From Pyrinomonadaceae bacterium (GTDB lineage: Bacteria; Acidobacteriota; Blastocatellia; Pyrinomonadales; Pyrinomonadaceae), in the NCBI GenBank assembly GCA_030841085.1, contig JAVEDP010000024.1, positions 248,001 through 312,000 on the forward strand: a stretch of 64,000 bases of DNA, in the 5' to 3' direction. The notes under the pieces are model-generated. The model made no database searches, was not told the origin of the DNA, and saw only the letters and a program-made list of their open reading frames with translations. Below are positions 14,373-58,212 of the stretch, in pieces; position 1 is the first letter of the stretch, and the number at the start of each line of letters is the position of its first letter. A program made the translations under genes and the position numbers.

Positions 14373-14415
14373 GTTGCAGAATCGGGTTTTGCACAAAAGT
14401 GTTTTTGCCCAACTA

Positions 14416-14554
14416 AGAGCGGGGGCAAGCCCACCTTCCCGACCTCGAGATTCCCCGGTTTGCGCGATTGCTTTCGCGTTGCATGTGGTGCCGGCGCCGA
14501 TCACGTAAACTCTGATCAGCTCGAGGTGGGGAAGGCGGGCTTTCCCCCGCTCTA
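14416..14554. repeat. Inverted repeat, family B variant (GCGGGGGCAAGCCC type)
   Basis: The left arm at 14416-14449 (AGCGGGGGCAAGCCCACCTT, then CCCGACCTCGA) pairs with the right arm at 14521-14554 (TCGAGGTGGGGAAGGCGGGC, then TTTCCCCCGCTCT). It follows the CPBP gene and is related to 5585-5663. No T-tract follows. Confidence 0.75.
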
Positions 14555-14634
14555 ACTCCTTGCAAAAAGCGAGCGATAAGAAAGAGAAAGCGCCCTGGCT
14601 GCGCGCATCGGCTGGATCAATCAGTTTGCATAGT

Positions 14635-14683
14635 CCGCCTGGCGGACGGCATGAAAATAGCCCAGCGATTTATCGCTGGGATT
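14635..14683. repeat. REP element flanking the transposase, left copy
   Basis: Two short hairpins side by side: CCGCCTGGCGGAC, then AGCCCAGCGATTTATCGCTG with GG. The reverse complement of 15228-15278 reads almost the same over about 50 bases, so the transposase gene is bracketed by an inverted REP pair. A further GTCCGTGAAGCGGAT lies at 14704. Confidence 0.85.
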
Positions 14684-14726
14684 CGTCCGAAATAATGCCG
14701 TAGTCCGTGAAGCGGATGGTTGAAGT

Positions 14727-15176
14727 TCAGAACACATAACGCGAATCGTATTCAATTCCGTGCTTGTTGAGGAGTTCTAGAAACTCTTCCTTAAAAGTTT
14801 TCTTACGATGGTGTTCTTTCTGATTGTTGATATATGCGATTGTCTTTGGCACCTGAGAAGCGCTAACACTAAATGCGCCATAACCTTCTTGCCATTGGAA
14901 CTTCTGCATTGCCGGAAACGTGTCGTGCACCCACTTTGACGAGCCGCCTTTAACTAGCTGAACTGCCTTTGCAAAACTCATAACTCCCGGGAGCGACAAC
15001 AACGCGTGCACGTGATCGTCGGCGCCGCCGATCGCGAGGGCTTTCATGCGGTTCTCTCTTGCAATACCTCCAAGGTAGGGCCAGAGGCGTAACTCCAACT
15101 CAGGGGTTAAGAAAGGATATCGTTCTTTAGTGCTGAAGGTGCAATGCATGAGGTTGCTGACGTGGGAGTGTGACAT
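14727..15176 (-). CDS. REP-associated / IS200-like tyrosine transposase (Y1 HUH nuclease)
   Basis: A single-strand DNA nuclease of the TnpA_REP or IS200 kind. DDHVHALLSLPG carries the HxH metal site of HUH enzymes and VPKTIAYINNQKEHHRKK carries the likely nucleophile Tyr. WQEGYGAFSVSASQV is a family-typical stretch. At 149 residues it appears full length and intact. It lies alone between REP hairpins in opposite orientation (14635-14683 and 15228-15278), the arrangement known for RAYTs, which are thought to move or maintain REP sequences. No tnpB is present and no target duplication is obvious. Confidence 0.9.
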   Translation of the reverse strand: MSHSHVSNLMHCTFSTKERYPFLTPELELRLWPYLGGIARENRMKALAIGGADDHVHALLSLPGVMSFAKAVQLVKGGSSKWVHDTFPAMQKFQWQEGYGAFSVSASQVPKTIAYINNQKEHHRKKTFKEEFLELLNKHGIEYDSRYVF

Positions 15177-15227
15177 TGAAGTCTCCTTTCAATCGTCCGC
15201 TCAGCGGACTGCCTTAGTTACCACTCT

Positions 15228-15278
15228 AATCCCAGCGCTCAAGCGCTGGGCTATTTTCATGTCGTCCGCTAAGCGGAC
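15228..15278. repeat. REP element flanking the transposase, right copy (inverted)
   Basis: AATCCCAGCGCTCAAGCGCT, then GGGCTATTTTCATG and GTCCGCTAAGCGGAC, form two hairpins. The whole element is the mirror of 14635-14683. An extra GTCCGCTCAGCGGAC lies at 15195-15209, just upstream of the transposase start. Confidence 0.85.
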
Positions 15279-15364
15279 TTGAAGGCAACAGAATTGCACT
15301 GGAGTTTGGAATCTCCAACGGCAAACCTGTTAGGCGCTATTTAGTTTTTTACAAGATTTCTTGC

Positions 15365-16510: not shown

Positions 16511-16595
16511 AAATTTTTCGGTGGCCCGAAGATAACAAACGACAGCGACGCGTGACAAGCGAGGGCTAAGGTCGGTGGCTGAACTTCTGAAGTCT

Positions 16596-16692
16596 TCTCT
16601 GTGCGTCCTTTGTGTCCTCTTTGACTCTGTGGTGGACCAATCGCTAATAAGACCACCACCGAGACACAGAGGACACAAAGGACGCACAGAGA
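16596..16692. repeat. Long inverted repeat, family C (CACAGAGGACACAAAGG type), copy 1
   Basis: TCTCTGTGCGTCCTTTGTGT (starting at 16596) pairs with ACACAAAGGACGCACAGAGA (ending at 16692), with further matching toward a short loop near 16640. A diverged copy lies at 40259-40355. It fills the gap upstream of citrate synthase. Confidence 0.85.
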
Positions 16693-16703
16693 AAACTAAG
16701 ACT

Positions 16704-30832: not shown

Positions 30833-30897
30833 CAATCCACCTCAACAACACAGCTCTTTCCTGGGCGCTGGTTCAGCTTCACTCATCATCCTGTATT

Positions 30898-31076
30898 AGG
30901 TCCGAAGGACCAGCAGTTAGTAGCCCCGTCCGTTAGGGCGGGGAGCTGTATCTCTCGATAGCCCAAAGGCCCGAAGGGCCGATACAAATCGTGTCGCACC
31001 TTCGGCGCTTCGAAACAACGGTCGCGTCTACCCCGCCCTAACGGACGGGGCTACTAACTGCCGGTCCTTCGGACCT
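30898..31076. repeat. Long inverted repeat (CCCCGTCCGTTAGGGCGGGG type)
   Basis: The left arm at 30898-30943 (AGGTCCGAAGGACCAGCAGT, then TAGTAGCCCCGTCCG) is nearly the exact reverse complement of the right arm at 31031-31076. About 85 bases of other sequence lie between, with their own small palindrome (GGCCCGAAGGGCC near 30968). It occupies the gap between the DUF3108 and GDPD genes. Confidence 0.85.
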
Positions 31077-31146
31077 GGGAATTAAACTGAAACAGTGCCC
31101 GTTCCTGCCCGCTCCTTTCATTTCATTCATTCACCACCGCGAGATT

Positions 31147-40258: not shown

Positions 40259-40355
40259 TTTTCTGTGCGGCCTCAGAGTCCTCTGTGCCTCAGTGGTGAC
40301 TGTTAGTTGATTGCCACCACAGAGACACAAAGGGCACAAAGGTTACACAGAGAAG
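40259..40355. repeat. Long inverted repeat, family C, copy 2 (between plsY and gpsA)
   Basis: TTCTGTGCGGCCTCAGAGTC, then CTCTGTGCCTCAGTGGTG, pairs imperfectly with CACCACAGAGACACAAAGGG, then CACAAAGGTTACACAGAG. It is a diverged relative of 16596-16692 and lies in the mRNA between two cooperating genes. Confidence 0.78.
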
Positions 40356-40377
40356 ACCTTAAATAAAAGACTCATGT

Positions 40378-46864: not shown

Positions 46865-47683
46865 ATGACTAAAAAAGCACTCTGCGTAGGTATCAACGAC
46901 TATCCATTCGGCGAAGAGAATGATCTAAGAGGATGCGTGAACGACGCAAACGACTGGACGGGCCTCCTGAAAAATCATTTCGGCTTCGCCGACGTCAAAC
47001 AATTGCTCAACGCCGACGCCACTAAAGCCAAGATAATGACGGGCATCAAAGACCTCTTGAATGGAGCGAAAGCCGGCGACATTCTGGTCTTCACGAACGC
47101 TTCGCATGGGACCTATCTCGCCGATACCGATGGCGATGAAGACAAATATGACGAGGCCATTTGTCCGTATGACACTGATTCAAACTTGCTGGTCGATGAC
47201 GAGTTGCGCCAGTTGTTTGCGAACATTCCGGACGGTGTTCGACTTTCCGTTATTTCGGATTCCTGTCACTCCGGCTCCGTTACTCGGGTCATGGTGAATG
47301 AGTACCGGCGCAATCGGCAATTGAACCCCCGCGTCTTCGGCGGTAAGGAACTTTCACCAGATCAACTGCGGGCGGCACGCAAGGGCGCGAGTGGCAGCGG
47401 AGCCAAGATTGTAGGTACGGACAAACATCCGGAATCCGCCATGAAGGAAATTCTGTTAAGCGGCTGCAAGAGCAATCAGACCTCCGCCGACGCCTACATA
47501 AACAGCGACTACCACGGCGCGATGAGTTATCACGCCATCAAAGCTATCACCGATGCTAACTACAATCTCACCTATGCCGATCTGCATAAGAGCGTGGTTT
47601 CGCTGCTCGAGGACGAAAACTACGATCAGGTACCGCAACTCGAAGGAACAGACGAATTCAAGAACCGACGGATTTTCACCTGA
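46865..47683 (+). CDS. Metacaspase-like caspase-fold peptidase (C14)
   Basis: A caspase-hemoglobinase fold protease. KKALCVGINDYPFGEENDLR is the N-terminal strand motif; LVFTNASHGTYLADTDGDE holds the catalytic His (residue 81) in place of the usual YSGHG; VRLSVISDSCHSGSVTRVM holds the catalytic Cys (134). Acidic stretches (DTDGDEDKYDE, DTDSNLLVDDE) could bind Ca2+, which activates many metacaspases. There is no signal peptide and no extra domain; 272 residues is a bare catalytic unit. AAGGAAG lies just before the ATG. A phosphoesterase gene follows after about 100 bases on the same strand. Substrate unknown. Confidence 0.9.
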   Translation: MTKKALCVGINDYPFGEENDLRGCVNDANDWTGLLKNHFGFADVKQLLNADATKAKIMTGIKDLLNGAKAGDILVFTNASHGTYLADTDGDEDKYDEAICPYDTDSNLLVDDELRQLFANIPDGVRLSVISDSCHSGSVTRVMVNEYRRNRQLNPRVFGGKELSPDQLRAARKGASGSGAKIVGTDKHPESAMKEILLSGCKSNQTSADAYINSDYHGAMSYHAIKAITDANYNLTYADLHKSVVSLLEDENYDQVPQLEGTDEFKNRRIFT

Positions 47684-49532: not shown

Positions 49533-49618
49533 GCCGGGGTGGCGGAATGGCAGACGCTACGGACTTAAAATCCGTTGTCCGCAAGGACGTGCGGGTTCGA
49601 CTCCCGCCCTCGGCACCA
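49533..49618 (+). tRNA. tRNA-Leu (anticodon UAA)
   Basis: The acceptor stem GCCGGGG pairs with CCTCGGC (one G-T); the anticodon stem ACGGA/TCCGT closes the loop CTTAAAA with anticodon TAA. A long variable arm (TTGTCCGCAAGGACG region) is typical of type II tRNAs, the T-loop is GGGTTCGACTCCC, and CCA is encoded. Length 86. Confidence 0.96.
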
Positions 49619-49656: not shown

Positions 49657-50484
49657 CTATTTTGGCATTTGCCAAAAAGACTCTTCATTTCCGTTTCCCC
49701 AAACAATGTCGCCGGTGTCAACTCCCAGCTTGTCAAAAAACTTGGTCCAGAGCATTTTTAGATTTTCCAGGCTTTGTTTGTCGTCCTGTGAGGTCAAAAC
49801 TACGTAGACTTTTGGCCGCAACGACTTCAATTCGACTTGATGAAAACTTTTGTCTATGCGGTGCTGAATATCCTCGAGATGTTTCTCTTCGTCCTTATCG
49901 TTGGCGTTTCGTTGGAAGGCCAATGGTTTACCGTCAAACGAGTTCGAGCAATCTTCAATCATGTCTGAATAAAAATAGACTCTGATTTCGTAGTCAGGAT
50001 AATTACTGCTCTTGTTTCTAATCATGTCCGACAACGAATTCAGTTTATTCGTCAGACAACTAACCGGCCCTTTTTGACTGGCGATCAACGTGTGATAAGA
50101 ATCCAGCGAGTCTTTTAGCTTTTTCAGTTCAACCTCTTCCTTCGCCTTTTGATTGTCTTCCATTTCCTTTTTGACTTTGTCTTCGTCGCTGGCCACTTTG
50201 ATTTCGCTAAAGTGCGGGATGAATTCATAGATATCCGGCTTGCTTGTACCGCGATCCACAGAAAACAAATAGAACCTTGTGTTCGGCGGCGTCTTGCTGA
50301 AAAGCTCACCAATATTTCGTTTGATCCGATTTGCTGTTTCCTCGTTAATGCTTCTAGTCAGATCGGCATAAACGATTGCGACGATACCTTCTTTGACATG
50401 TGGCGTGGGCTTATCGATACCACACCCCGCAAGGGCCAGCGAAACTAGCGTCAGCGAAACATGGCCTAATCTTCTGGTTTGCAT
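49657..50484 (-). CDS. Lipoprotein with von Willebrand A-like MIDAS motif (third gene of unknown operon)
   Basis: Residues 1-21 (LTLVSLALAGC) form a clear lipoprotein signal with Cys 21. Directly after, GIVAIVYADLTRSINEETAN has strand-D-x-T-x-S, close to the DxSxS metal-site motif of von Willebrand A domains (D41, T43, S45). RVYFYSDMIEDCSNS later resembles the third metal-site strand, and RPKVYVVLTSQDD the strand after it. A charged helix (about residues 95-125) interrupts the domain. It starts one base after the stop of the upstream membrane protein gene, so it belongs to that operon. It converges on tRNA-Leu. No known name; the vWA assignment is inferred from motif order. Confidence 0.8.
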   Translation of the reverse strand: MQTRRLGHVSLTLVSLALAGCGIDKPTPHVKEGIVAIVYADLTRSINEETANRIKRNIGELFSKTPPNTRFYLFSVDRGTSKPDIYEFIPHFSEIKVASDEDKVKKEMEDNQKAKEEVELKKLKDSLDSYHTLIASQKGPVSCLTNKLNSLSDMIRNKSSNYPDYEIRVYFYSDMIEDCSNSFDGKPLAFQRNANDKDEEKHLEDIQHRIDKSFHQVELKSLRPKVYVVLTSQDDKQSLENLKMLWTKFFDKLGVDTGDIVWGNGNEESFWQMPK

Positions 50485-50485
50485 A

Positions 50486-51988
50486 CTAATTCACGGCGCC
50501 CTCAAGGATTTTCACCGAGCTTACGGCGGGCACTTCGCTGGTTAGGGGTTGATCCGGATCCGCCAGGTTGCGATTTCTCAAGGCTTCGGCTCGGGTATAC
50601 AAGTCACCACCGAAAATCCACTGGGGATACAAGTAACCAAACTTATACCCGGCGTTGTAACAATCAATCAGAAAGTTTTTTAGATGTTTAAGCGTTTCTT
50701 CCTTTTTCATCCATTCGAGAAAACTCTTATTCCGTTCCTTTTCTTCCCACTTGATTCTGAATCGATCGGTCGCCTCGAGCAGTTTCTGTTCCGCACGGGC
50801 GTTCTCTTTTCGCGCCTTATTCATCTCGCTCCAATTGTGAAAGCTACTGAGTGAAAGTGAACCGCAAATACCGCTGATGATTGGGAAGATCAGCGTTAAC
50901 AAGGTATAGGTAAGAAAGATAACCAAGCGGGGTACGCCAGCCACCTCGCTCTGCGTTTGAGAGGTGACCGAGTAACGGAAGTATCCAAGCACCAGAATCG
51001 TCGCAAACAACACCAGCAACACTGCTAGTTTCACACAGAAACGCACCCACCAAAGCCGACTAAATCTAGCCGCCCTTGCTTCTTTCCGTGATTCATTTTC
51101 GTTAATTCCAGATTGGTCCACCGTAGTAATTTCTTGCACCAAGGAGGCATCGCCATTCTCTCTAGTTGCGACTTCAACGTCCCCTAATTCGGCTTCACCG
51201 TAGTCCTCCGGAGATTCTGAAGCCTTCTTGATCAAGTTTTCCAACGGAACGCCAACAAAGTCATCGTAGAAGATTTTGATGTAGATAGTGCAAAAGGCGA
51301 TCCCGGTAGCAAATATCACAACTTCCCAATTAACGGTCAAAACTCTGAGGAAATGAGGGATGAAGCCTTCGGGAGTACCAAAGGCAAACAAATCACTAAT
51401 TGCGCTGAATTTGTCCGACTTGAGGTTGAGACCTCTCTTGGTTAGCTCAAGAGCAAGAGGAATATCAGCAAGTATCAACGCTAATGCAAAGAAGCCATAA
51501 ATACACCCCAGGACTAATGAAAACTGCCGGTGGCTGTACTGATAAGCGCGGTTTAGTTTCTGGTAATAACGGTTCTTTGCCTGGTAGTCGCGCTCGGCGT
51601 TAGTCCTAAGTGTCTCCAGAAGCTTGACATGACTTTCCAAGTTTCTTTGGTTGCTTTGAAACTTCTCTTCGATAAGGTTTTTGGTTATGAGGACGCGCAT
51701 CGCAGCCGTTCCCTCGAGACCGTGCTCGCGTATTCCCCAAAGTCCCGCGACGTAGCCTGATTTCCTAAACGACTCGCCGATAACGAGAAACTCACGCAAG
51801 TAGGTGTTTTCTTCGAGCTTATTGACGGTACTTTTGAAGAAATCAGTAAATGAACCAATCGCGTCGGCAAATTTTTGACGAGCCTGCCCGGCTTCATCTA
51901 GCGGATTATTAACTGGCGAGGGCGGCGCGCCCGCGTTTCTAATCACGTTAATCTTTTCACGAATCCATCGTGATGCGGTTTCAATCAT
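50486..51988 (-). CDS. Polytopic membrane protein with coiled-coil segments (second gene of unknown operon)
   Basis: Not recognised. An N-terminal soluble part of about 165 residues includes a coiled coil (NQRNLESHVKLLETLRTNAE). Two membrane segments follow (VLGCIYGFFALALILADIPL, WEVVIFATGIAFCTIYIKI), then an acidic loop (SPEDYGEAELGDVEV). Another two come next (VRFCVKLAVLLVLFATILVL, LVIFLTYTLLTLIFPIISGI), then a charged helix KENARAEQKLLEATDRF and a Tyr/Trp-rich end. ATG at 51988 overlaps the stop of the first gene by eight bases; a GTG at 51997 is an alternative. Base composition looks AT-richer than the housekeeping genes. No nucleotide-binding motif is seen. Confidence 0.8.
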   Translation of the reverse strand: MIETASRWIREKINVIRNAGAPPSPVNNPLDEAGQARQKFADAIGSFTDFFKSTVNKLEENTYLREFLVIGESFRKSGYVAGLWGIREHGLEGTAAMRVLITKNLIEEKFQSNQRNLESHVKLLETLRTNAERDYQAKNRYYQKLNRAYQYSHRQFSLVLGCIYGFFALALILADIPLALELTKRGLNLKSDKFSAISDLFAFGTPEGFIPHFLRVLTVNWEVVIFATGIAFCTIYIKIFYDDFVGVPLENLIKKASESPEDYGEAELGDVEVATRENGDASLVQEITTVDQSGINENESRKEARAARFSRLWWVRFCVKLAVLLVLFATILVLGYFRYSVTSQTQSEVAGVPRLVIFLTYTLLTLIFPIISGICGSLSLSSFHNWSEMNKARKENARAEQKLLEATDRFRIKWEEKERNKSFLEWMKKEETLKHLKNFLIDCYNAGYKFGYLYPQWIFGGDLYTRAEALRNRNLADPDQPLTSEVPAVSSVKILEGAVN

Positions 51989-54272
51989 GATTACCACCGT
52001 TTGTAGTGTGGCTAAGATGCGGGATTTTTGAACTCTTTAGACCGTGTCTGGTGAACCAGTCGCCCAACTCGAAGCCCTCGACAATCTTCTGGGTGAAAAA
52101 CTTTTGTTTACGCAGCTCAAGATTGATGTCGTAATGCGACTTTCTCTTTCGATTAGTAATAGCCTTGTGATAGTTTCTCGCTCGGATTTCCTGAACCTGT
52201 AGTTCCCGAAGTTTCTTTTCGTAGAACTCGCCTTTTTGTTCAGTCCGAAATTTCATTTCCGTTTCAATCGAGGCAATTCGTTCTCTTACCTCTTTAGCTT
52301 CTGCCTCCAGGGCACCCAATTCCGCTTCAAGTTTGGGAAAACACAATCGAATCTCCTCAGATGCCGTGAAACCGCTCAAGTCATTTTCATGTGGTTGCTC
52401 ATCAGTTTGCCTTGCCGCTCCACCAAACCGACTTACAAGACGTCTCCCTTTGAGCCACTTGTTAAGTTTCATTAAAAAGGAATCGTGCTCATCAATCTTT
52501 ATCAGAGGTGTATCGATTGCTTTGCGTGTCACCCTGGTGCGCGCCAACATCAAGTTCATAATCTCGTCTCTGATCAATATGAACCGACGATTAAAGTGGG
52601 CATTTTCTACCTGCGTCAAGTAGATTTGCAGCGGTCGGGAAATTCGAATCAACTTCGTCTGAATAATGTCGCAGGTCTGTTCAAGTTCTCGCCGAGACGC
52701 ATCCAAACCCTGGAGACGTAAACCAAAACCTAGAAGCAGAGCCGTCAACAGGCAGGCGCCCGCAAAGAACATCAATGAGACGATTGACAGCGTATTGCTT
52801 GCTGATTTGAACGGATGCTGAAACCCAAACAAGGTAATCAACACAATCGCTATAAATGTCAGAATAACGACAAAGAGTTCAAGGTTTAGCCTGACCCAGG
52901 AGCCTCCGGCGTTACTGGTCAAGGCGTCTGTTTGACTTTCAGCCCTTTGTTCAACTCTTTTTTCAAGTACCATCGTGAGGTAAACGTATGACACCCCGCC
53001 ACACCCCAATGCGATTAAGAAACCCATTCCATATCCAGCCATCGAGGCGTCCAAACTTTTGATGTTGCCCATGTCGGTTCCCAGGGAAACAAGCAGGAAG
53101 GCAATTGTCAGGAACAACAGGTAGGGAATGGCTTTAATCCAAAAACCAAAGAAAGTCTTTTCTCGCACTGCCGCCCGGACGGGAAACTCGTTATTCAAGT
53201 TGATTTCTATGGCGAAGTTATTCATGGAGAGGTCGCCTTCGCCGGAATCTTTGCTCTTCAGCGCCTCCGCTTGAGAATCCGTTTGCAGCAACCGTTTATA
53301 GGCCGCGTGGCAGATCCAGGAAACCGCAAAAATTAGCGCCAGCAAAACGAGAAAGATTGCCAACAAGACGCCTGCATACATTAGTCTTGCGCTAAATGCT
53401 GGCGGACTTCCCTCTGGCGATTGGCCAATGAATCCTGTGCTGAAAGCAAAGAGTCCTTGAACTACGAACGAAAGGATTCCGCCTGACGCAAAATAGTTGG
53501 TTTCGGCAAATGATGCGAAAAATGCGCCAGCGACAGTTGCAGCGACAAAACCCGCGTTATAGAGAAAGCTGGAACTCAAAAAATGAAAGCCTGACACGTT
53601 AAGCAGTCTTAACTTGGACAGTACGTCTCGATGTTCACGGTGGTACTGTTCAAATAAGGCAAGCAGGAAAATCTTCTTCTTTTCTAACGCCTCCTTTTGT
53701 TTTTCAAAGATTTCCTCATTAAGTGACATTCTTGTTCTTACGACAGTCTCGAGCTCTGCATTGAGACGGTTGAGCTCGTCCAGAAGAGCTTCCTGCCTAT
53801 CTTTAATGAGGGTTTCTTTTTTAGCACCAATATCGACGACTGCATTCCTTATTTCTCCGCGCAGCGCTTCGAGACGTGCTTTTAGTAGAGGCAAATCATT
53901 CTTGAGCAGTTGAACCTCTTCCTCATAACGCTTCAAACTAGCCTTGATCTCTTCTCTTTTGTTTTCTGCTTCTTCCTTCCGAATGGTGAACCGAGCGACA
54001 TCCTCATCGAGTTCGATGGTCAAGTCTCCTACTCTCTTTTCAACTGACTTGACTAATCTTCCTATCGCCTGTCGGAATTCGTCTTCGGAGGATTTGTTGA
54101 ACGCAGAATAAAAACCTACTCGTTTGTAAAACTCGGCGTCGACCCGAGTTTTCTCGGTGGTCGCTTCCTTTTCGGTAGCGTCGGAAATTTTCCAGGGGTA
54201 GAAGTCGGATTCGAGATTTTGTTCTTCCCCGACTACGGCATGATTACCGTTGTGAGATGTTTGCGGGTCCAT
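51981..54272 (-). CDS. Large polytopic membrane protein with N- and C-terminal coiled coils (first gene of unknown operon)
   Basis: Not recognised. Residues 60-215 are a long coiled coil (EEAENKREEIKASLKRYEEE, QEALLDELNRLNAELETVVR). About seven hydrophobic segments follow between residues 235 and 535 (SFVVQGLFAFSTGFIG, YAGVLLAIFLVLLALIFAVS, AIPYLLFLTIAFLLVSLG, GYGMGFLIALGCGGVSYVYL, LFVVILTFIAIVLITLFGF, FFAGACLLTALLLGFGL). A second coiled coil (KLEAELGALEAEAKEVRERI) and a basic tail end the protein. No enzyme motif is visible. The ATG at 54272 has only a weak ribosome site. It heads the three-gene operon. Shape suggests a membrane scaffold or force-sensing assembly, but that is inference. Confidence 0.8.
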   Translation of the reverse strand: MDPQTSHNGNHAVVGEEQNLESDFYPWKISDATEKEATTEKTRVDAEFYKRVGFYSAFNKSSEDEFRQAIGRLVKSVEKRVGDLTIELDEDVARFTIRKEEAENKREEIKASLKRYEEEVQLLKNDLPLLKARLEALRGEIRNAVVDIGAKKETLIKDRQEALLDELNRLNAELETVVRTRMSLNEEIFEKQKEALEKKKIFLLALFEQYHREHRDVLSKLRLLNVSGFHFLSSSFLYNAGFVAATVAGAFFASFAETNYFASGGILSFVVQGLFAFSTGFIGQSPEGSPPAFSARLMYAGVLLAIFLVLLALIFAVSWICHAAYKRLLQTDSQAEALKSKDSGEGDLSMNNFAIEINLNNEFPVRAAVREKTFFGFWIKAIPYLLFLTIAFLLVSLGTDMGNIKSLDASMAGYGMGFLIALGCGGVSYVYLTMVLEKRVEQRAESQTDALTSNAGGSWVRLNLELFVVILTFIAIVLITLFGFQHPFKSASNTLSIVSLMFFAGACLLTALLLGFGLRLQGLDASRRELEQTCDIIQTKLIRISRPLQIYLTQVENAHFNRRFILIRDEIMNLMLARTRVTRKAIDTPLIKIDEHDSFLMKLNKWLKGRRLVSRFGGAARQTDEQPHENDLSGFTASEEIRLCFPKLEAELGALEAEAKEVRERIASIETEMKFRTEQKGEFYEKKLRELQVQEIRARNYHKAITNRKRKSHYDINLELRKQKFFTQKIVEGFELGDWFTRHGLKSSKIPHLSHTTNGGNHD

Positions 54273-54635: not shown

Positions 54636-55082
54636 TTAATGCGAGGATAGTTGTTGGAACAGAATCGACCAATCTTCGCCGTCGATTACAGTCGGCTGAA
54701 ACGCGAATTGGCCTTGAGTCCGAATTACGTTATTCCACTGGCTTCCTGAGTTTCTCACAACCGGAAGATTTGCAATGTCTGTTTTCTCCATTTGTTTTTC
54801 AGGAGAACCCAAAGGATAAATATCGAACGGGAGTTTCCATTCTTCGGGCCAGATATTTCTGACTATGACGCCTTCATCGGGAGTTGAAGCAACAATGAAG
54901 GGAGTCGTGAGCGATTGCGTCTCGACGCAATACAAAATACCTAGAGATCCAATACGCAACGCTTTAGCTTTTGTGATAATACCCGGGTTAGCGGCTTGAT
55001 CTTGTGAGACAGCCCACTTTCGTGCACCGATACCGGCCCAAATGTTAGTCAGGGTCTTTGAGCTGAAAACAAAGAGTTCCAT
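54636..55082 (-). CDS. Small soluble protein, possible EVE/PUA-like fold
   Basis: No firm family. The order of short motifs (KTLTNIWAGIGARKWAVS, LRIGSLGILYCVE, TPFIVASTP, NIWPEEWKLPFDIYPLG) resembles EVE/PUA-like domains, which bind modified nucleotides in RNA or DNA and often sit near restriction or defence genes. 148 residues with no signal or membrane segment. The ATG at 55082 has AAGGGAG eight bases upstream; a longer frame from 55121 is less likely. It is on the same strand as the three-gene operon, 363 bases upstream of it, probably a separate unit. Confidence 0.65.
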   Translation of the reverse strand: MELFVFSSKTLTNIWAGIGARKWAVSQDQAANPGIITKAKALRIGSLGILYCVETQSLTTPFIVASTPDEGVIVRNIWPEEWKLPFDIYPLGSPEKQMEKTDIANLPVVRNSGSQWNNVIRTQGQFAFQPTVIDGEDWSILFQQLSSH

Positions 55083-55293
55083 TAGATATCTCCCTTGAAG
55101 GATCGGCGCATCGCCCAACATCCTAAGTATTTATCAACTGCTCAATAATACCCCCAAACGCGGTATTGAACATTATCCGCGGGCCACCAAATCAGGACCA
55201 TACATTTACCCACAACCCAATTCTCGGAATGAGTCAGGCCAAAGATCGTTGAAAATAAAGCAACCAGCGTGCTCCGCCGGCTATTCGTCGCTT

Positions 55294-55471
55294 CGCCCCA
55301 GAGGGGCGAGATGTTTATAGCCTGGCGGTCCTTTCGGTACTCCGAAGCTCCGTTAGGAGCGCAATCGCTTTGCCGCCTCAGTGAAGTTTCTGTTCAGGGG
55401 TTTCGCTCCTAACGGAGCGAGATCTTTTGGGGGGTGTGCTCGTAGCTATAAACATCTCGCTCCTCTGGAGC
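55294..55471. repeat. Nested inverted repeats (CGCTCCTAACGGAGCGAG type)
   Basis: Outer pair: CGCCCCAGAGGGGCGAGATG, then TTTATAG at 55294-55320, with CTATAAACATCTCGCTCCTC (55445 on). Inner pair: GCTCCGTTAGGAGCG at about 55347 with CGCTCCTAACGGAGC at 55405. Other short matches flank them up to about 55505. They fill the roughly 580-base gap 55083-55662 before the STAS gene; nothing else is recognised there. Confidence 0.8.
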
Positions 55472-55662
55472 GAAAACAAAACGTCTGGGCTTCTCTGGAA
55501 CGAAACTAATTCAATTGCGATCAACGCCGATGCTCCAGGCTGAGTTTTCAGCAAACGCCGAAAAAGCGGCCCATAGCGAAAACGAAAACGCAGTGATTCA
55601 AGGAAATTGCAACTGGCACTCAGCGTGCAACGTTCAAGCGTGGCACTTGAGAGCAAACGAAC

Positions 55663-56432: not shown

Positions 56433-56523
56433 TTCCGCAACTCGTCGCGTTCATCAACAAGTCGCAGTAGGCTCGACTGCCTGAACGACACGCTAGAGGC
56501 CATCGTTGAAGCGACAGGACAAA

Positions 56524-58212
56524 ATGTCGAATCTGCCAGACGCTGAGGATGCCTTATCGCCACCGCCGGGAACTACCCCCAGCGAAATGTTTCCCGTCCT
56601 AACCTCCGCCCAACAAGCTCGCGTGCTCGCACACGGCCAACGTCGCACCGTGGAACAGGGTGAGATCGTTGTCGAGCTTAATGAGCATGTAACCAAAGTC
56701 TTCGTTGTAGTTAACGGGCAACTGCACATCCTGCAGGTCTCGAACAATCAGGAGCAAATCGTCGCCATCTGCAATCCGGGCATGTTTACCGGCGAACTAA
56801 ACGTGCTCTCGGGCCGTCGTGGACTGGTGCGCATACGCGCCGCGGAAAAATCAGAACTCATTGAGATAGAGCGCGAGGCATTGCAGGGCTTGGTCGAGAC
56901 CGACAGCGAACTCAGCGATATCTTTCTACGAGCTTTCATCCTGCGTCGTCTCGAATTAATTGCGCGCGAAGTTGGTGACATCGTTTTGATTGGCTCCAGT
57001 CATTCGCTTGACACCTTTCGCATCAAGGAGTTTCTGACTCGCAATTACCAACCGTATTCCTACATCGATCTCGAGCGTGATGCCGAGGTTCAGGAAATGC
57101 TCGATCGCTTTTCTCTGTCGATTGATGACCTGCCCGTTCTGATCTGTCGGGGCACCGCAGTACTGCGCAATCCAACCAATGAGGAAATTACCGAATGTCT
57201 CGGGCTCAACGAAGGCATCGAGCAAACCCACGTACGCGACCTGATCATCGTTGGCGCCGGGCCCGCCGGTTTGGCGGCAGCAGTGTACGGCGCATCCGAG
57301 GGACTCGATGTTCTGGTGGTTGAGTCCAACTCACCCGGAGGACAAGCAGGTGCAAGTTCAAAGATTGAAAACTATTTGGGTTTCCCAACCGGAATAACAG
57401 GCAAAGAGCTGGCCGGAAATGCATACGCGCAGGCACAGAAGTTCGGTGCGCAAATATTGATTGCCAAAGAAGCTCACGGTTTAGCTTGTGACCGGCGGCC
57501 TTATGCGTTGAAGTTTGATGATGGCGAGAAAGTGACGGCTCGAACCGTTGTTATTGCCACCGGCGCAATGTATCGAAGACTTTCGTTGGAGAATTTGTCC
57601 CGGTTTGAAGGGGCGGGCGTCTATTACGGCGCAACACACCTCGAGTCGCAGTTGTGCAGTGGAGAAGAAGTCGTTGTCGTTGGTGGAGGAAATTCCGCTG
57701 GACAAGCAGCTGTATTTCTCTCCCAAACCGCGCGTCGTGTTTATGTCCTTGTTCGCTCAAACGGTTTAGCTAAGAGCATGTCGCGCTATCTAATCCGGCG
57801 AATCGAAGAAAGCCCGAATATAGAATTGCGCATAGACACTGAAGTGATTGCATTGAGTGGAAACGATCATCTTGAGGCGATCGAGTGGCGCAACAACAAG
57901 AGTGGTAAGGTTGAGAAGCATAAGATCGGTGCACTATTTTCGATGATTGGCGCCGTGCCAAATTCCGCTTGGGTTGAAGATTGTGTGGCGCGCGATGGCG
58001 CGGGCTTCATTAAGACCGGTTCCGATCTTTCCAAGGAAGATTTGGAGCGTGCTAAATGGCCGCTCGCTCGCGCTCCTTATTTACTTGAAACCAGTCTGCC
58101 AGGTGTTTTCGCCGTCGGAGACGTTCGCGGCGGAAACGTTAAGCGCGTCGCGTCAGCTGTGGGCGAAGGATCGATTGCCGTCGCTTTCGTGCATCGAGTG
58201 CTCGCCGAATAA
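56524..58212 (+). CDS. Cyclic-nucleotide-binding domain / thioredoxin-like / thioredoxin-reductase-like flavoprotein
   Basis: Three parts. Residues 20-140 are a cNMP-binding beta-roll (EQGEIVVELNEHVTKVFVVV, GMFTGELNVLSGRR). About 150-235 is a thioredoxin/glutaredoxin-like domain without a CxxC (LIGSSHSLDTFRIKEFLTRN). From 240 the flavoprotein core has LIIVGAGPAGLAAAVYGASE (FAD), IENYLGFPTGITGKELA, VVVVGGGNSAGQAAVFLS (NADPH) and GVFAVGDVRGGNVKRVA (FAD end). At the place of the redox CATC motif the sequence is YYGATHLESQLC, so the cysteine pair of real thioredoxin reductases is absent. ATG at 56524 has AGGA five bases upstream. Confidence 0.9.
   Translation: MSNLPDAEDALSPPPGTTPSEMFPVLTSAQQARVLAHGQRRTVEQGEIVVELNEHVTKVFVVVNGQLHILQVSNNQEQIVAICNPGMFTGELNVLSGRRGLVRIRAAEKSELIEIEREALQGLVETDSELSDIFLRAFILRRLELIAREVGDIVLIGSSHSLDTFRIKEFLTRNYQPYSYIDLERDAEVQEMLDRFSLSIDDLPVLICRGTAVLRNPTNEEITECLGLNEGIEQTHVRDLIIVGAGPAGLAAAVYGASEGLDVLVVESNSPGGQAGASSKIENYLGFPTGITGKELAGNAYAQAQKFGAQILIAKEAHGLACDRRPYALKFDDGEKVTARTVVIATGAMYRRLSLENLSRFEGAGVYYGATHLESQLCSGEEVVVVGGGNSAGQAAVFLSQTARRVYVLVRSNGLAKSMSRYLIRRIEESPNIELRIDTEVIALSGNDHLEAIEWRNNKSGKVEKHKIGALFSMIGAVPNSAWVEDCVARDGAGFIKTGSDLSKEDLERAKWPLARAPYLLETSLPGVFAVGDVRGGNVKRVASAVGEGSIAVAFVHRVLAE

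What the first reader, a model, noticed from the sequence alone, without database searches (positions are those of the whole stretch)
49657..54272. Unrecognised three-gene envelope operon: two coiled-coil polytopic proteins and a MIDAS-type lipoprotein
Seen: three genes on one strand, overlapping by 8 bases and then spaced by 1 base. They encode about seven membrane segments with coiled coils at both ends (763 aa), four segments with coiled coils (about 500 aa), and a lipoprotein with LAGC and a D-x-T-x-S strand motif. The region looks AT-richer than its surroundings and abuts tRNA-Leu(UAA), a common island site. Known: vWA/MIDAS domains bind partners through a metal. Inference: a conserved membrane complex with an extracytoplasmic sensor or adhesion subunit, possibly stress or defence related.
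Basis: partly seen in the sequence, partly recalled or inferred. Interest (0 to 1): 0.75.

Follow-up and report, generated by a model that had tools for sequence, protein, structure and literature searches.

The report
Mobile membrane trio with MIDAS lipoprotein
Three neighbouring bacterial genes of no known family encode what looks like a sensor complex in the cell envelope, and the same trio recurs in distant bacteria, in some of them next to protein-cutting enzymes of the kinds seen in bacterial immune and cell-suicide systems.

Summary
Three co-directional genes encode A (763 aa, multi-TM, coiled coils at both ends), B (500 aa, four TM, coiled coils) and C (275-aa lipoprotein with D-x-T-x-S). 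Their GC (46.3%) lies far below the rest of the window. None reaches a Pfam or NCBIfam cut-off, and none has a convincing PADLOC or PHROGs match. The trio is not strain-specific: A-B-C recurs in the same order in seven loci of two phyla (five Acidobacteriota, two flavobacteria), at 14-31% identity across lineages, and the A, B and C distance matrices agree (r 0.88-0.97). It is sporadic: 2 of 119 genomes of the family, 2 of 162 of the class, 3 of 148 of another class. C models as a vWA fold (Z 13.3) with MIDAS positions kept in 7 of 7. In Kordia and Croceitalea the trio ends a conserved cluster with a trypsin-like protease and a two-component system; in one acidobacterium it follows caspase, TPR-CHAT, vWA, tubulin-like and vWA genes on one strand; in two others no such partner was seen. 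Best reading: a portable envelope sensor coupled to varying, often proteolytic, outputs, probably a conflict system. Complex formation, ligand and function are inferred.

The parts
51981..54272 (-). Gene A: 763-aa polytopic membrane protein, six conserved TM segments plus one extra hydrophobic stretch, long coiled-coil regions at both ends; first gene of the trio
   Evidence: ORF; hydropathy and heptad script; homologues in six further loci, split into two ORFs in G516 and Croceitalea
50486..51988 (-). Gene B: 500-aa membrane protein with four TM segments and coiled coils on the predicted cytoplasmic ends; overlaps A by 8 bases
   Evidence: ORF; hydropathy; seven-row alignment A10 with invariant polar positions D175, K238, D242, R316, R338
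49657..50484 (-). Gene C: 275-aa lipoprotein with a vWA fold and MIDAS motifs (D41-x-T43-x-S45, S142, D174) and invariant Cys143/Cys179
   Evidence: ORF; seven-row alignment A11; AF2 model and structural matches
54636..55121 (-). Possible accessory gene: 161-aa protein in the same AT-rich block, same strand, 363 bases upstream of A; its only relative found lies in a restriction-type cluster of the same genome. Membership in the system is uncertain; not found beside the other trios
49533..49618 (+). tRNA-Leu(UAA) at the border of the AT-rich block; likely integration site in the genus (context, not part of the system)

Best explanation
A, B and C form one inner-membrane complex carried as an accessory (mobile) module. 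C is lipid-anchored on the outer side of the cytoplasm, and its vWA domain binds a ligand or partner protein through a metal at its MIDAS. Binding or loss of that partner is passed through the TM segments of B and A to their long cytoplasmic coiled coils, which assemble or rearrange and switch on an output. The output differs by host: a trypsin-like protease and a two-component system in two flavobacteria, and a caspase/CHAT/tubulin-like/vWA set in one acidobacterium. In the window the partner is the adjacent 161-aa gene, a gene elsewhere, or none. The likeliest role is a conflict (immune or cell-death) system that detects envelope damage or an invader at the cell surface. Shown: the genes, their order, cross-phylum conservation, agreeing divergence, lipobox, vWA fold model, MIDAS and Cys conservation, sporadic spread, and the neighbourhoods. 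Inferred: complex, topology in the cell, metal, ligand, direction of the signal, immune role.
For: Seven loci in two phyla with A-B-C in one order on one strand, 14-31% identity outside the G311/G523/G516 group, agreeing distance matrices. C: lipobox Cys and MIDAS positions in 7 of 7, vWA fold. Sporadic: 2 of 119, 2 of 162, 3 of 148 genomes. AT-richer than the surroundings in 6 of 7 genomes (for the two flavobacteria the whole seven-gene cluster was measured). Trypsin-like protease with intact H, D, S and a histidine kinase/regulator pair upstream in both flavobacteria, same order. Caspase, TPR-CHAT, vWA, tubulin-like, vWA directly upstream in G523, gaps of 33 bases or less. The window's fourth gene has a 49% paralogue inside a type IIG R-M/PLD-SNF2 helicase cluster.
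Against: No co-folding or experiment. G311 and G516 show no recognised protease or defence partner beside the trio, and G440's contig ends just upstream. The flavobacterial 172-aa gene is absent from all 5 acidobacterial trio genomes and the trypsin-like gene from 4 of 5, with one weak hit in G516, so no output is shared. No convincing PADLOC match for A, B or C. Not found in 50,697 phage records (B only) or 72,556 plasmid records, so mobility rests on GC, the tRNA and patchy spread. The seven-tip matrices are dominated by one close group. Croceitalea's cluster is not AT-rich.
Confidence: 0.45

Rival explanations
1. A non-immune envelope complex: a membrane-to-wall or membrane-to-outer-membrane tether or ordinary envelope-stress sensor, whose vWA lipoprotein holds a structural partner; the proteases and two-component system serve stress response.
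For: Lipoprotein plus coiled-coil membrane proteins; a two-component system beside the trio in both flavobacteria; trio without defence partners in G311 and G516.
Against: Sporadic presence (2 of 119, 2 of 162, 3 of 148), low GC and signs of transfer between phyla are unlike a housekeeping envelope complex; caspase/CHAT/vWA/tubulin company in G523.
Confidence: 0.27
2. A membrane-attacking effector with its brake: A and B are the pore or membrane-disrupting part (invariant charged residues at TM ends of B), and C restrains them from outside until triggered.
For: Invariant D175, K238, D242, R316 and R338 at or near TM ends of B; multi-TM proteins as effectors are described in conflict systems (PMC7159879, passages and two sections).
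Against: No similarity to a known pore or effector at a cut-off; the long coiled coils suggest scaffolding.
Confidence: 0.12
3. Part of a transport, secretion or conjugation apparatus.
For: A distant B-C pair in G315 is followed by an FtsK/TrwB/HerA-like ATPase gene.
Against: No such ATPase was recognised in the seven trio loci as far as genes were scanned or read; the G315 pair is only weakly related (B E 7e-8, C E 7e-6) and lacks A in the stretch read.
Confidence: 0.1
4. Three unrelated genes together by chance, or a strain-specific oddity.
For: Single-protein searches at first found nothing outside the genome, and none reaches a known family.
Against: Seven loci in two phyla, one gene order, agreeing divergence.
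Confidence: 0.01

Closest known systems
GAP1-N2 GTPase-centric conflict systems with tubulin and vWA genes (Kaur et al. 2020, PMC7159879; that section read)
   Same: Membrane-proximal; tubulin-family gene plus two vWA genes, one extracytoplasmic, as in the G523 locus
   Different: No GTPase or GAP1 was found among the scanned genes; A and B are not described in the parts of the paper that I read; only one of seven trio loci has the tubulin-like gene
EACC1 two-gene membrane system and NucA-trypsin system (same paper; EACC1 section read; NucA passages)
   Same: A membrane component proposed to sense and to activate a caspase- or trypsin-type protease
   Different: EACC1 has a single TM helix; here two multi-TM coiled-coil proteins and a vWA lipoprotein; no NucA nuclease seen
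vWA domains with MIDAS, such as integrin I domains and Ku80 (fold matches)
   Same: Fold of C; D-x-[ST]-x-S, S/T and D positions
   Different: About 8-10% identity; lipobox; invariant Cys pair; no Pfam vWA cut-off reached
Zorya ZorA (PADLOC models)
   Same: Multi-TM membrane protein with a long helical cytoplasmic part (recalled)
   Different: No MotA/ExbB match in the A and B proteins scanned; the ZorA matches to Kordia A fall on its coiled coil (best E 0.0014, residues 96-201)

Membership tests
vWA/MIDAS domain (protein C) | vWA fold | tested here: met
   AF2 model from 7 rows, mean pLDDT 69.8, pTM 0.70; VIA Z 13.3, rmsd 3.3, 180 aligned to Ku80 7axz_B; Z 12.4, rmsd 3.4, 171 aligned to integrin CR3 I domain 1ido
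vWA/MIDAS domain (protein C) | MIDAS residues D-x-[ST]-x-S, T/S, D | tested here: met
   D41, T/S43, S45, S/T142, D174 in 7 of 7; places after strands 1 and 4 and before a helix in the model; the MIDAS scheme itself is recalled
vWA/MIDAS domain (protein C) | Reaches a Pfam vWA cut-off | tested here: not met
   No vWA match for the window's C, G440, G523 or Croceitalea C; VWA_2 at E 0.085 below cut-off for G516; G311 and Kordia C not scanned with Pfam
vWA/MIDAS domain (protein C) | Binds a divalent metal | not testable with these tools
   Needs a structure or binding assay
Bacterial lipoprotein (protein C) | Signal peptide ending in a lipobox Cys | tested here: met
   LAGC, Cys21; the Cys is aligned in 7 of 7; no signal-peptide program was available
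MoxR-vWA ternary conflict systems | MoxR AAA+ ATPase gene in the system | tested here: not met
   No AAA+ match among the four genes of the window block or the flanking genes P0013 and P0014; genes further out were read by eye only
GAP1-N2 tubulin/vWA systems | GTPase with GAP1 | tested here: inconclusive
   Absent among the G523 genes scanned, but genes further away were not scanned; no tubulin-like gene recognised at the other six loci
GAP1-N2 tubulin/vWA systems | Tubulin-family gene with vWA genes | tested here: met
   For the G523 locus only: Tubulin_2 6.3e-24, VWA_2 1.3e-9, VWA 5.6e-12
Zorya ZorA (proteins A, B) | MotA/ExbB/TolQ domain | tested here: not met
   No such Pfam match for A or B of the window, G440, G523 or Croceitalea (N piece of A); G311, G516 and Kordia A/B not scanned with Pfam
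Known or candidate defence system in PADLOC-DB 2.0.0 | Specific match to a system protein | tested here: not met
   Window A, B, C: only coiled-coil LmuB matches to A, best E 0.0026. Kordia A, B, C and G523 C: best is JetC 9.7e-7 on the coiled coil of Kordia A. Other loci not scanned
tRNA-borne genomic island | Synteny break at the tRNA 3' end with a foreign-like composition | tested here: met
   DNA match to G014 and G005 stops at 49618 with other DNA beyond; G011 contig ends 133 bases on; GC 46.3% against 54.1% mean
tRNA-borne genomic island | Second tRNA-end copy at the far border, and an integrase | tested here: not met
   No second copy in the window; no integrase match among the four genes of the block; a lone 52-base end lies on another contig of this genome

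The most novel reading that the evidence does not exclude
An unnamed class of trans-envelope immune receptor in bacteria: an integrin-like MIDAS lipoprotein outside, two new families of coiled-coil membrane transducers, and interchangeable proteases (trypsin-, caspase- or CHAT-type) as output, passed horizontally between Acidobacteriota and Bacteroidota. It would be a bacterial surface receptor wired to a protease cascade.
Probability: 0.27. Interest if true: 0.85.

Novelty: new variant of a known kind. Interest (0 to 1): 0.6.

Why it matters
Most characterised bacterial defence sensors act in the cytosol (recalled). A conserved, patchily spread module whose binding domain lies outside the cytoplasm, and which in three of seven loci travels with caspase-, CHAT- or trypsin-type proteases, would make surface-triggered immunity or cell death in bacteria directly testable. 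It also gives two new membrane protein families and seven starting loci.

Tried and rejected
Single-protein searches first suggested a strain-specific trio: nothing in 38 relatives (A), 395 further phylum genomes (B), plasmids, phages (B only), viral contigs (and profiles), or a first genome-contig scan with A. The family search with A and later profiles overturned that.

Profile hits dropped after reading their loci: G373 (housekeeping genes); G512 and G601 (transporter-like, Nramp by recall); G406 (permease-like, by recall). G315 is kept apart as a distant B-C pair and not counted among the seven loci.

Considered and rejected: the caspase-like gene at 46865-47683 as partner. A fold identity for B (AF2 mean pLDDT 66.0, no PDB match at E 0.001 or better). 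PDB by sequence with a two-row profile of C: no match up to E 10. A promoter or terminator signal: promoter-like sites no more than in shuffles, terminator-like sites within one standard deviation of shuffles. Locus L080, upstream of G311, was fetched but not read.

Literature: five searches list no description of this trio. I read two sections of PMC7159879 and passages of it, passages of PMC8195603, and otherwise listings only. Subscription journals are mostly not covered.

In G516 and Croceitalea gene A is in two ORFs (a 4-base overlap in another frame; an in-frame stop followed by a start 6 bases on). Natural fission and sequence error cannot be told apart. The pieces were kept apart, and only the N-terminal piece entered.
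Full report
Observation. The three ORFs, their overlap and spacing, the lipobox and the D-x-T-x-S motif are as described. The AT-rich block is real: 46.3% GC over 49657-54272 against 52.3-56.5% in 195 overlapping same-length windows outside it. It extends to about 55.2 kb and so includes a fourth gene, 54636-55121. Hydropathy gives seven hydrophobic segments in A of the window and of G440, six in the unsplit A of G311, G523 and Kordia, four plus two in the pieces of G516, and five in the pieces of Croceitalea; six with both ends inside fits best. B has four in six of seven and three in Croceitalea.

Island border. Between 37 kb and the tRNA much of the sequence is syntenic with G011, G014 and G005 (the stretch 46.8-49.3 kb only with G011), and in all three the match ends at the last base of the tRNA, 49618. 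G014 and G005 carry other genes beyond it; G011's contig ends 133 bases on. Partial copies matching only the 3' part of this tRNA occur in other genomes of the genus and on contig C24 of this genome; in ten such loci, from ten genomes, ARAGORN finds no tRNA gene, so they look like attachment-site remnants. In G015 a tyrosine-integrase gene lies 100 bases from the tRNA. The tRNA is therefore a likely integration site, although the window's own block shows neither a second copy of the tRNA end nor an integrase.

Not a known family. A, B and C reach no Pfam or NCBIfam cut-off and give no PHROGs match at E 0.01. In PADLOC, A matches LmuB at E 0.0026 on its coiled coil and nothing better. Not every homologue was scanned in every library.

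Relatives. A search with A gave one relative besides the window's own in 119 genomes of the family (G440, E 5.5e-38); its neighbours are B and C in the same order with the same 8-base A-B overlap. A two-row profile of B found G311 in a phylum sample, and a three-row profile found G523 and G516 in the class of G311. With the window that makes seven loci, each A-B-C on one strand. Tallies, own genome included where it lies in the group: 2 of 119 (family), 2 of 162 (class), 3 of 148 in the class of G311 after dropping 2 of 5 raw hits, and 2 of 396 in a phylum sample, plus one distant pair, after dropping 1 of 4 raw hits.

One unit. Outside the G311/G523/G516 group pairwise identities are 14-31%, yet the A, B and C matrices agree (r 0.91 AB, 0.88 AC, 0.97 BC; 4, 8 and 6 of 5040 permutations do as well). 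With seven tips, three of them close, this is supportive rather than strong. G440's B and C are nearer to Kordia's (0.30, 0.29) than to the window's (0.24, 0.20); A shows no clear difference (0.24 against 0.23). This hints at transfer between phyla; no tree was built.

Protein C. In all seven: lipobox Cys21, D41, T or S at 43, S45, S or T at 142, C143, S173-D174-M175, E177, C179, W246, G254. The AF2 model (seven rows, mean pLDDT 69.8) is an alternating alpha/beta fold; its best structural matches include Ku80 (Z 13.3), integrin I domains (12.4 for 1ido) and proteasome Rpn10, which I recognise as vWA proteins. The invariant Cys pair suggests a disulfide outside the cytoplasm (inference). B modelled poorly and matched nothing in PDB at E 0.001 or better.

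Neighbourhoods. In Kordia and Croceitalea seven gene positions keep their order: a 172-215-aa protein with a shared C-terminal NEEPRT stretch, a histidine kinase, a response regulator (GerE type in Kordia; Croceitalea's, 59% identical, was not scanned), a trypsin-like protease, A, B, C. The protease keeps H, D and S in the expected contexts and is 57% identical between the two, while B and C are 27-33%. For the Kordia protease the best PADLOC models are RT-Protease_XI (1.3e-13) and a NACHT model (4.5e-10). These two partner genes are not general: the 172-aa protein is in 0 of 5 acidobacterial trio genomes and the protease in 0 of 5 but for one weak hit in G516 (E 9.1e-4). In G523 one strand carries caspase (C14), TPR-CHAT, vWA, tubulin-like, vWA, A, B, C and a small membrane protein; from caspase to C no gap exceeds 33 bases, and a second CHAT gene lies 1.1 kb further upstream. 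In G311 and G516 no such partners were seen, by eye. G440's contig ends after one 170-aa ORF upstream of A, and a 194-aa membrane protein follows C. The window's fourth gene has one relative in 118 genomes of the family, a 49% paralogue in the same genome, beside a type IIG R-M gene, a PLD/SNF2-type helicase gene and a DUF3800 gene. The trio (for the flavobacteria the seven-gene cluster) is AT-richer than its surroundings in six of seven genomes, not in Croceitalea.

Reading. Two unlike protease modules carry the same membrane trio, and the trio also occurs without a recognised partner. The simplest account is a transferable envelope sensor or transducer whose output varies. An immune or cell-death role rests on the company it keeps and on its patchy spread. 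Kaur et al. 2020 (PMC7159879; the GAP1-N2 and EACC1 sections read; passages) describe similar logic with other parts. A MoxR ATPase or GTPase/GAP1 core was not found among the genes scanned, so membership is not claimed. I rate it a new variant of a known kind (vWA-containing, protease-coupled conflict systems) with a fair chance of being its own class.

Limits. Seven loci; no co-folding; the genome sets are samples; many flanking genes were read by eye; the two flavobacterial genomes could not serve as search centres, so how common the cluster is in Bacteroidota is unknown.

Noticed in passing
46865-47683 (+): Caspase-like peptidase gene (Pfam Peptidase_C14, E 3.6e-29), syntenic in same-genus G011 and present in G006; not linked to the trio.
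   Followed up: partly
49533-49618 (+) and loci L038-L041, L044-L049: Lone 3' parts of this tRNA-Leu are scattered in ten genomes of the genus, one of them this genome (C24), with no tRNA gene called there: a much used integration site.
   Followed up: partly
L073 8727-17336 (own genome, contig C12): Paralogue (49%) of the window's 161-aa gene in a cluster with a type IIG R-M protein, a PLD/SNF2 helicase and DUF3800: a probable defence locus whose small gene has no Pfam family.
   Followed up: partly
L071 6395-8538: Distant B-C pair with a 4-base overlap; C-like lipoprotein with D-x-T-x-S; followed by an FtsK/TrwB/HerA-like ATPase gene. A wider superfamily may exist.
   Followed up: no
L059 8696-9928 and 10029-19502: In G015 a tyrosine integrase beside the tRNA-Leu, and two further 3' tRNA copies 4.3 and 9.4 kb on: tandem insertions.
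   Followed up: no
L079 126-12666 with L020 6474-16121: G523 run of caspase, TPR-CHAT, vWA, tubulin-like, vWA and the trio, with a second CHAT gene upstream; worth study as a system of its own.
   Followed up: partly
14415-15282, 16590-16701, 30863-31096, 40259-40357: Short dispersed repeats, also found on other contigs of this genome and in G014, often in both orientations.
   Followed up: no
55288-55475: Cluster of short GC-rich hairpins just right of the AT-rich block.
   Followed up: no
56506-58212 (+): Thioredoxin-reductase-like oxidoreductase fused to a cyclic-nucleotide-binding domain (Pfam).
   Followed up: no
L024 9901-10584: Two small GG-containing, Cys-rich peptides just downstream of the Kordia trio, resembling ribosomal peptide precursors (recalled).
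   Followed up: no
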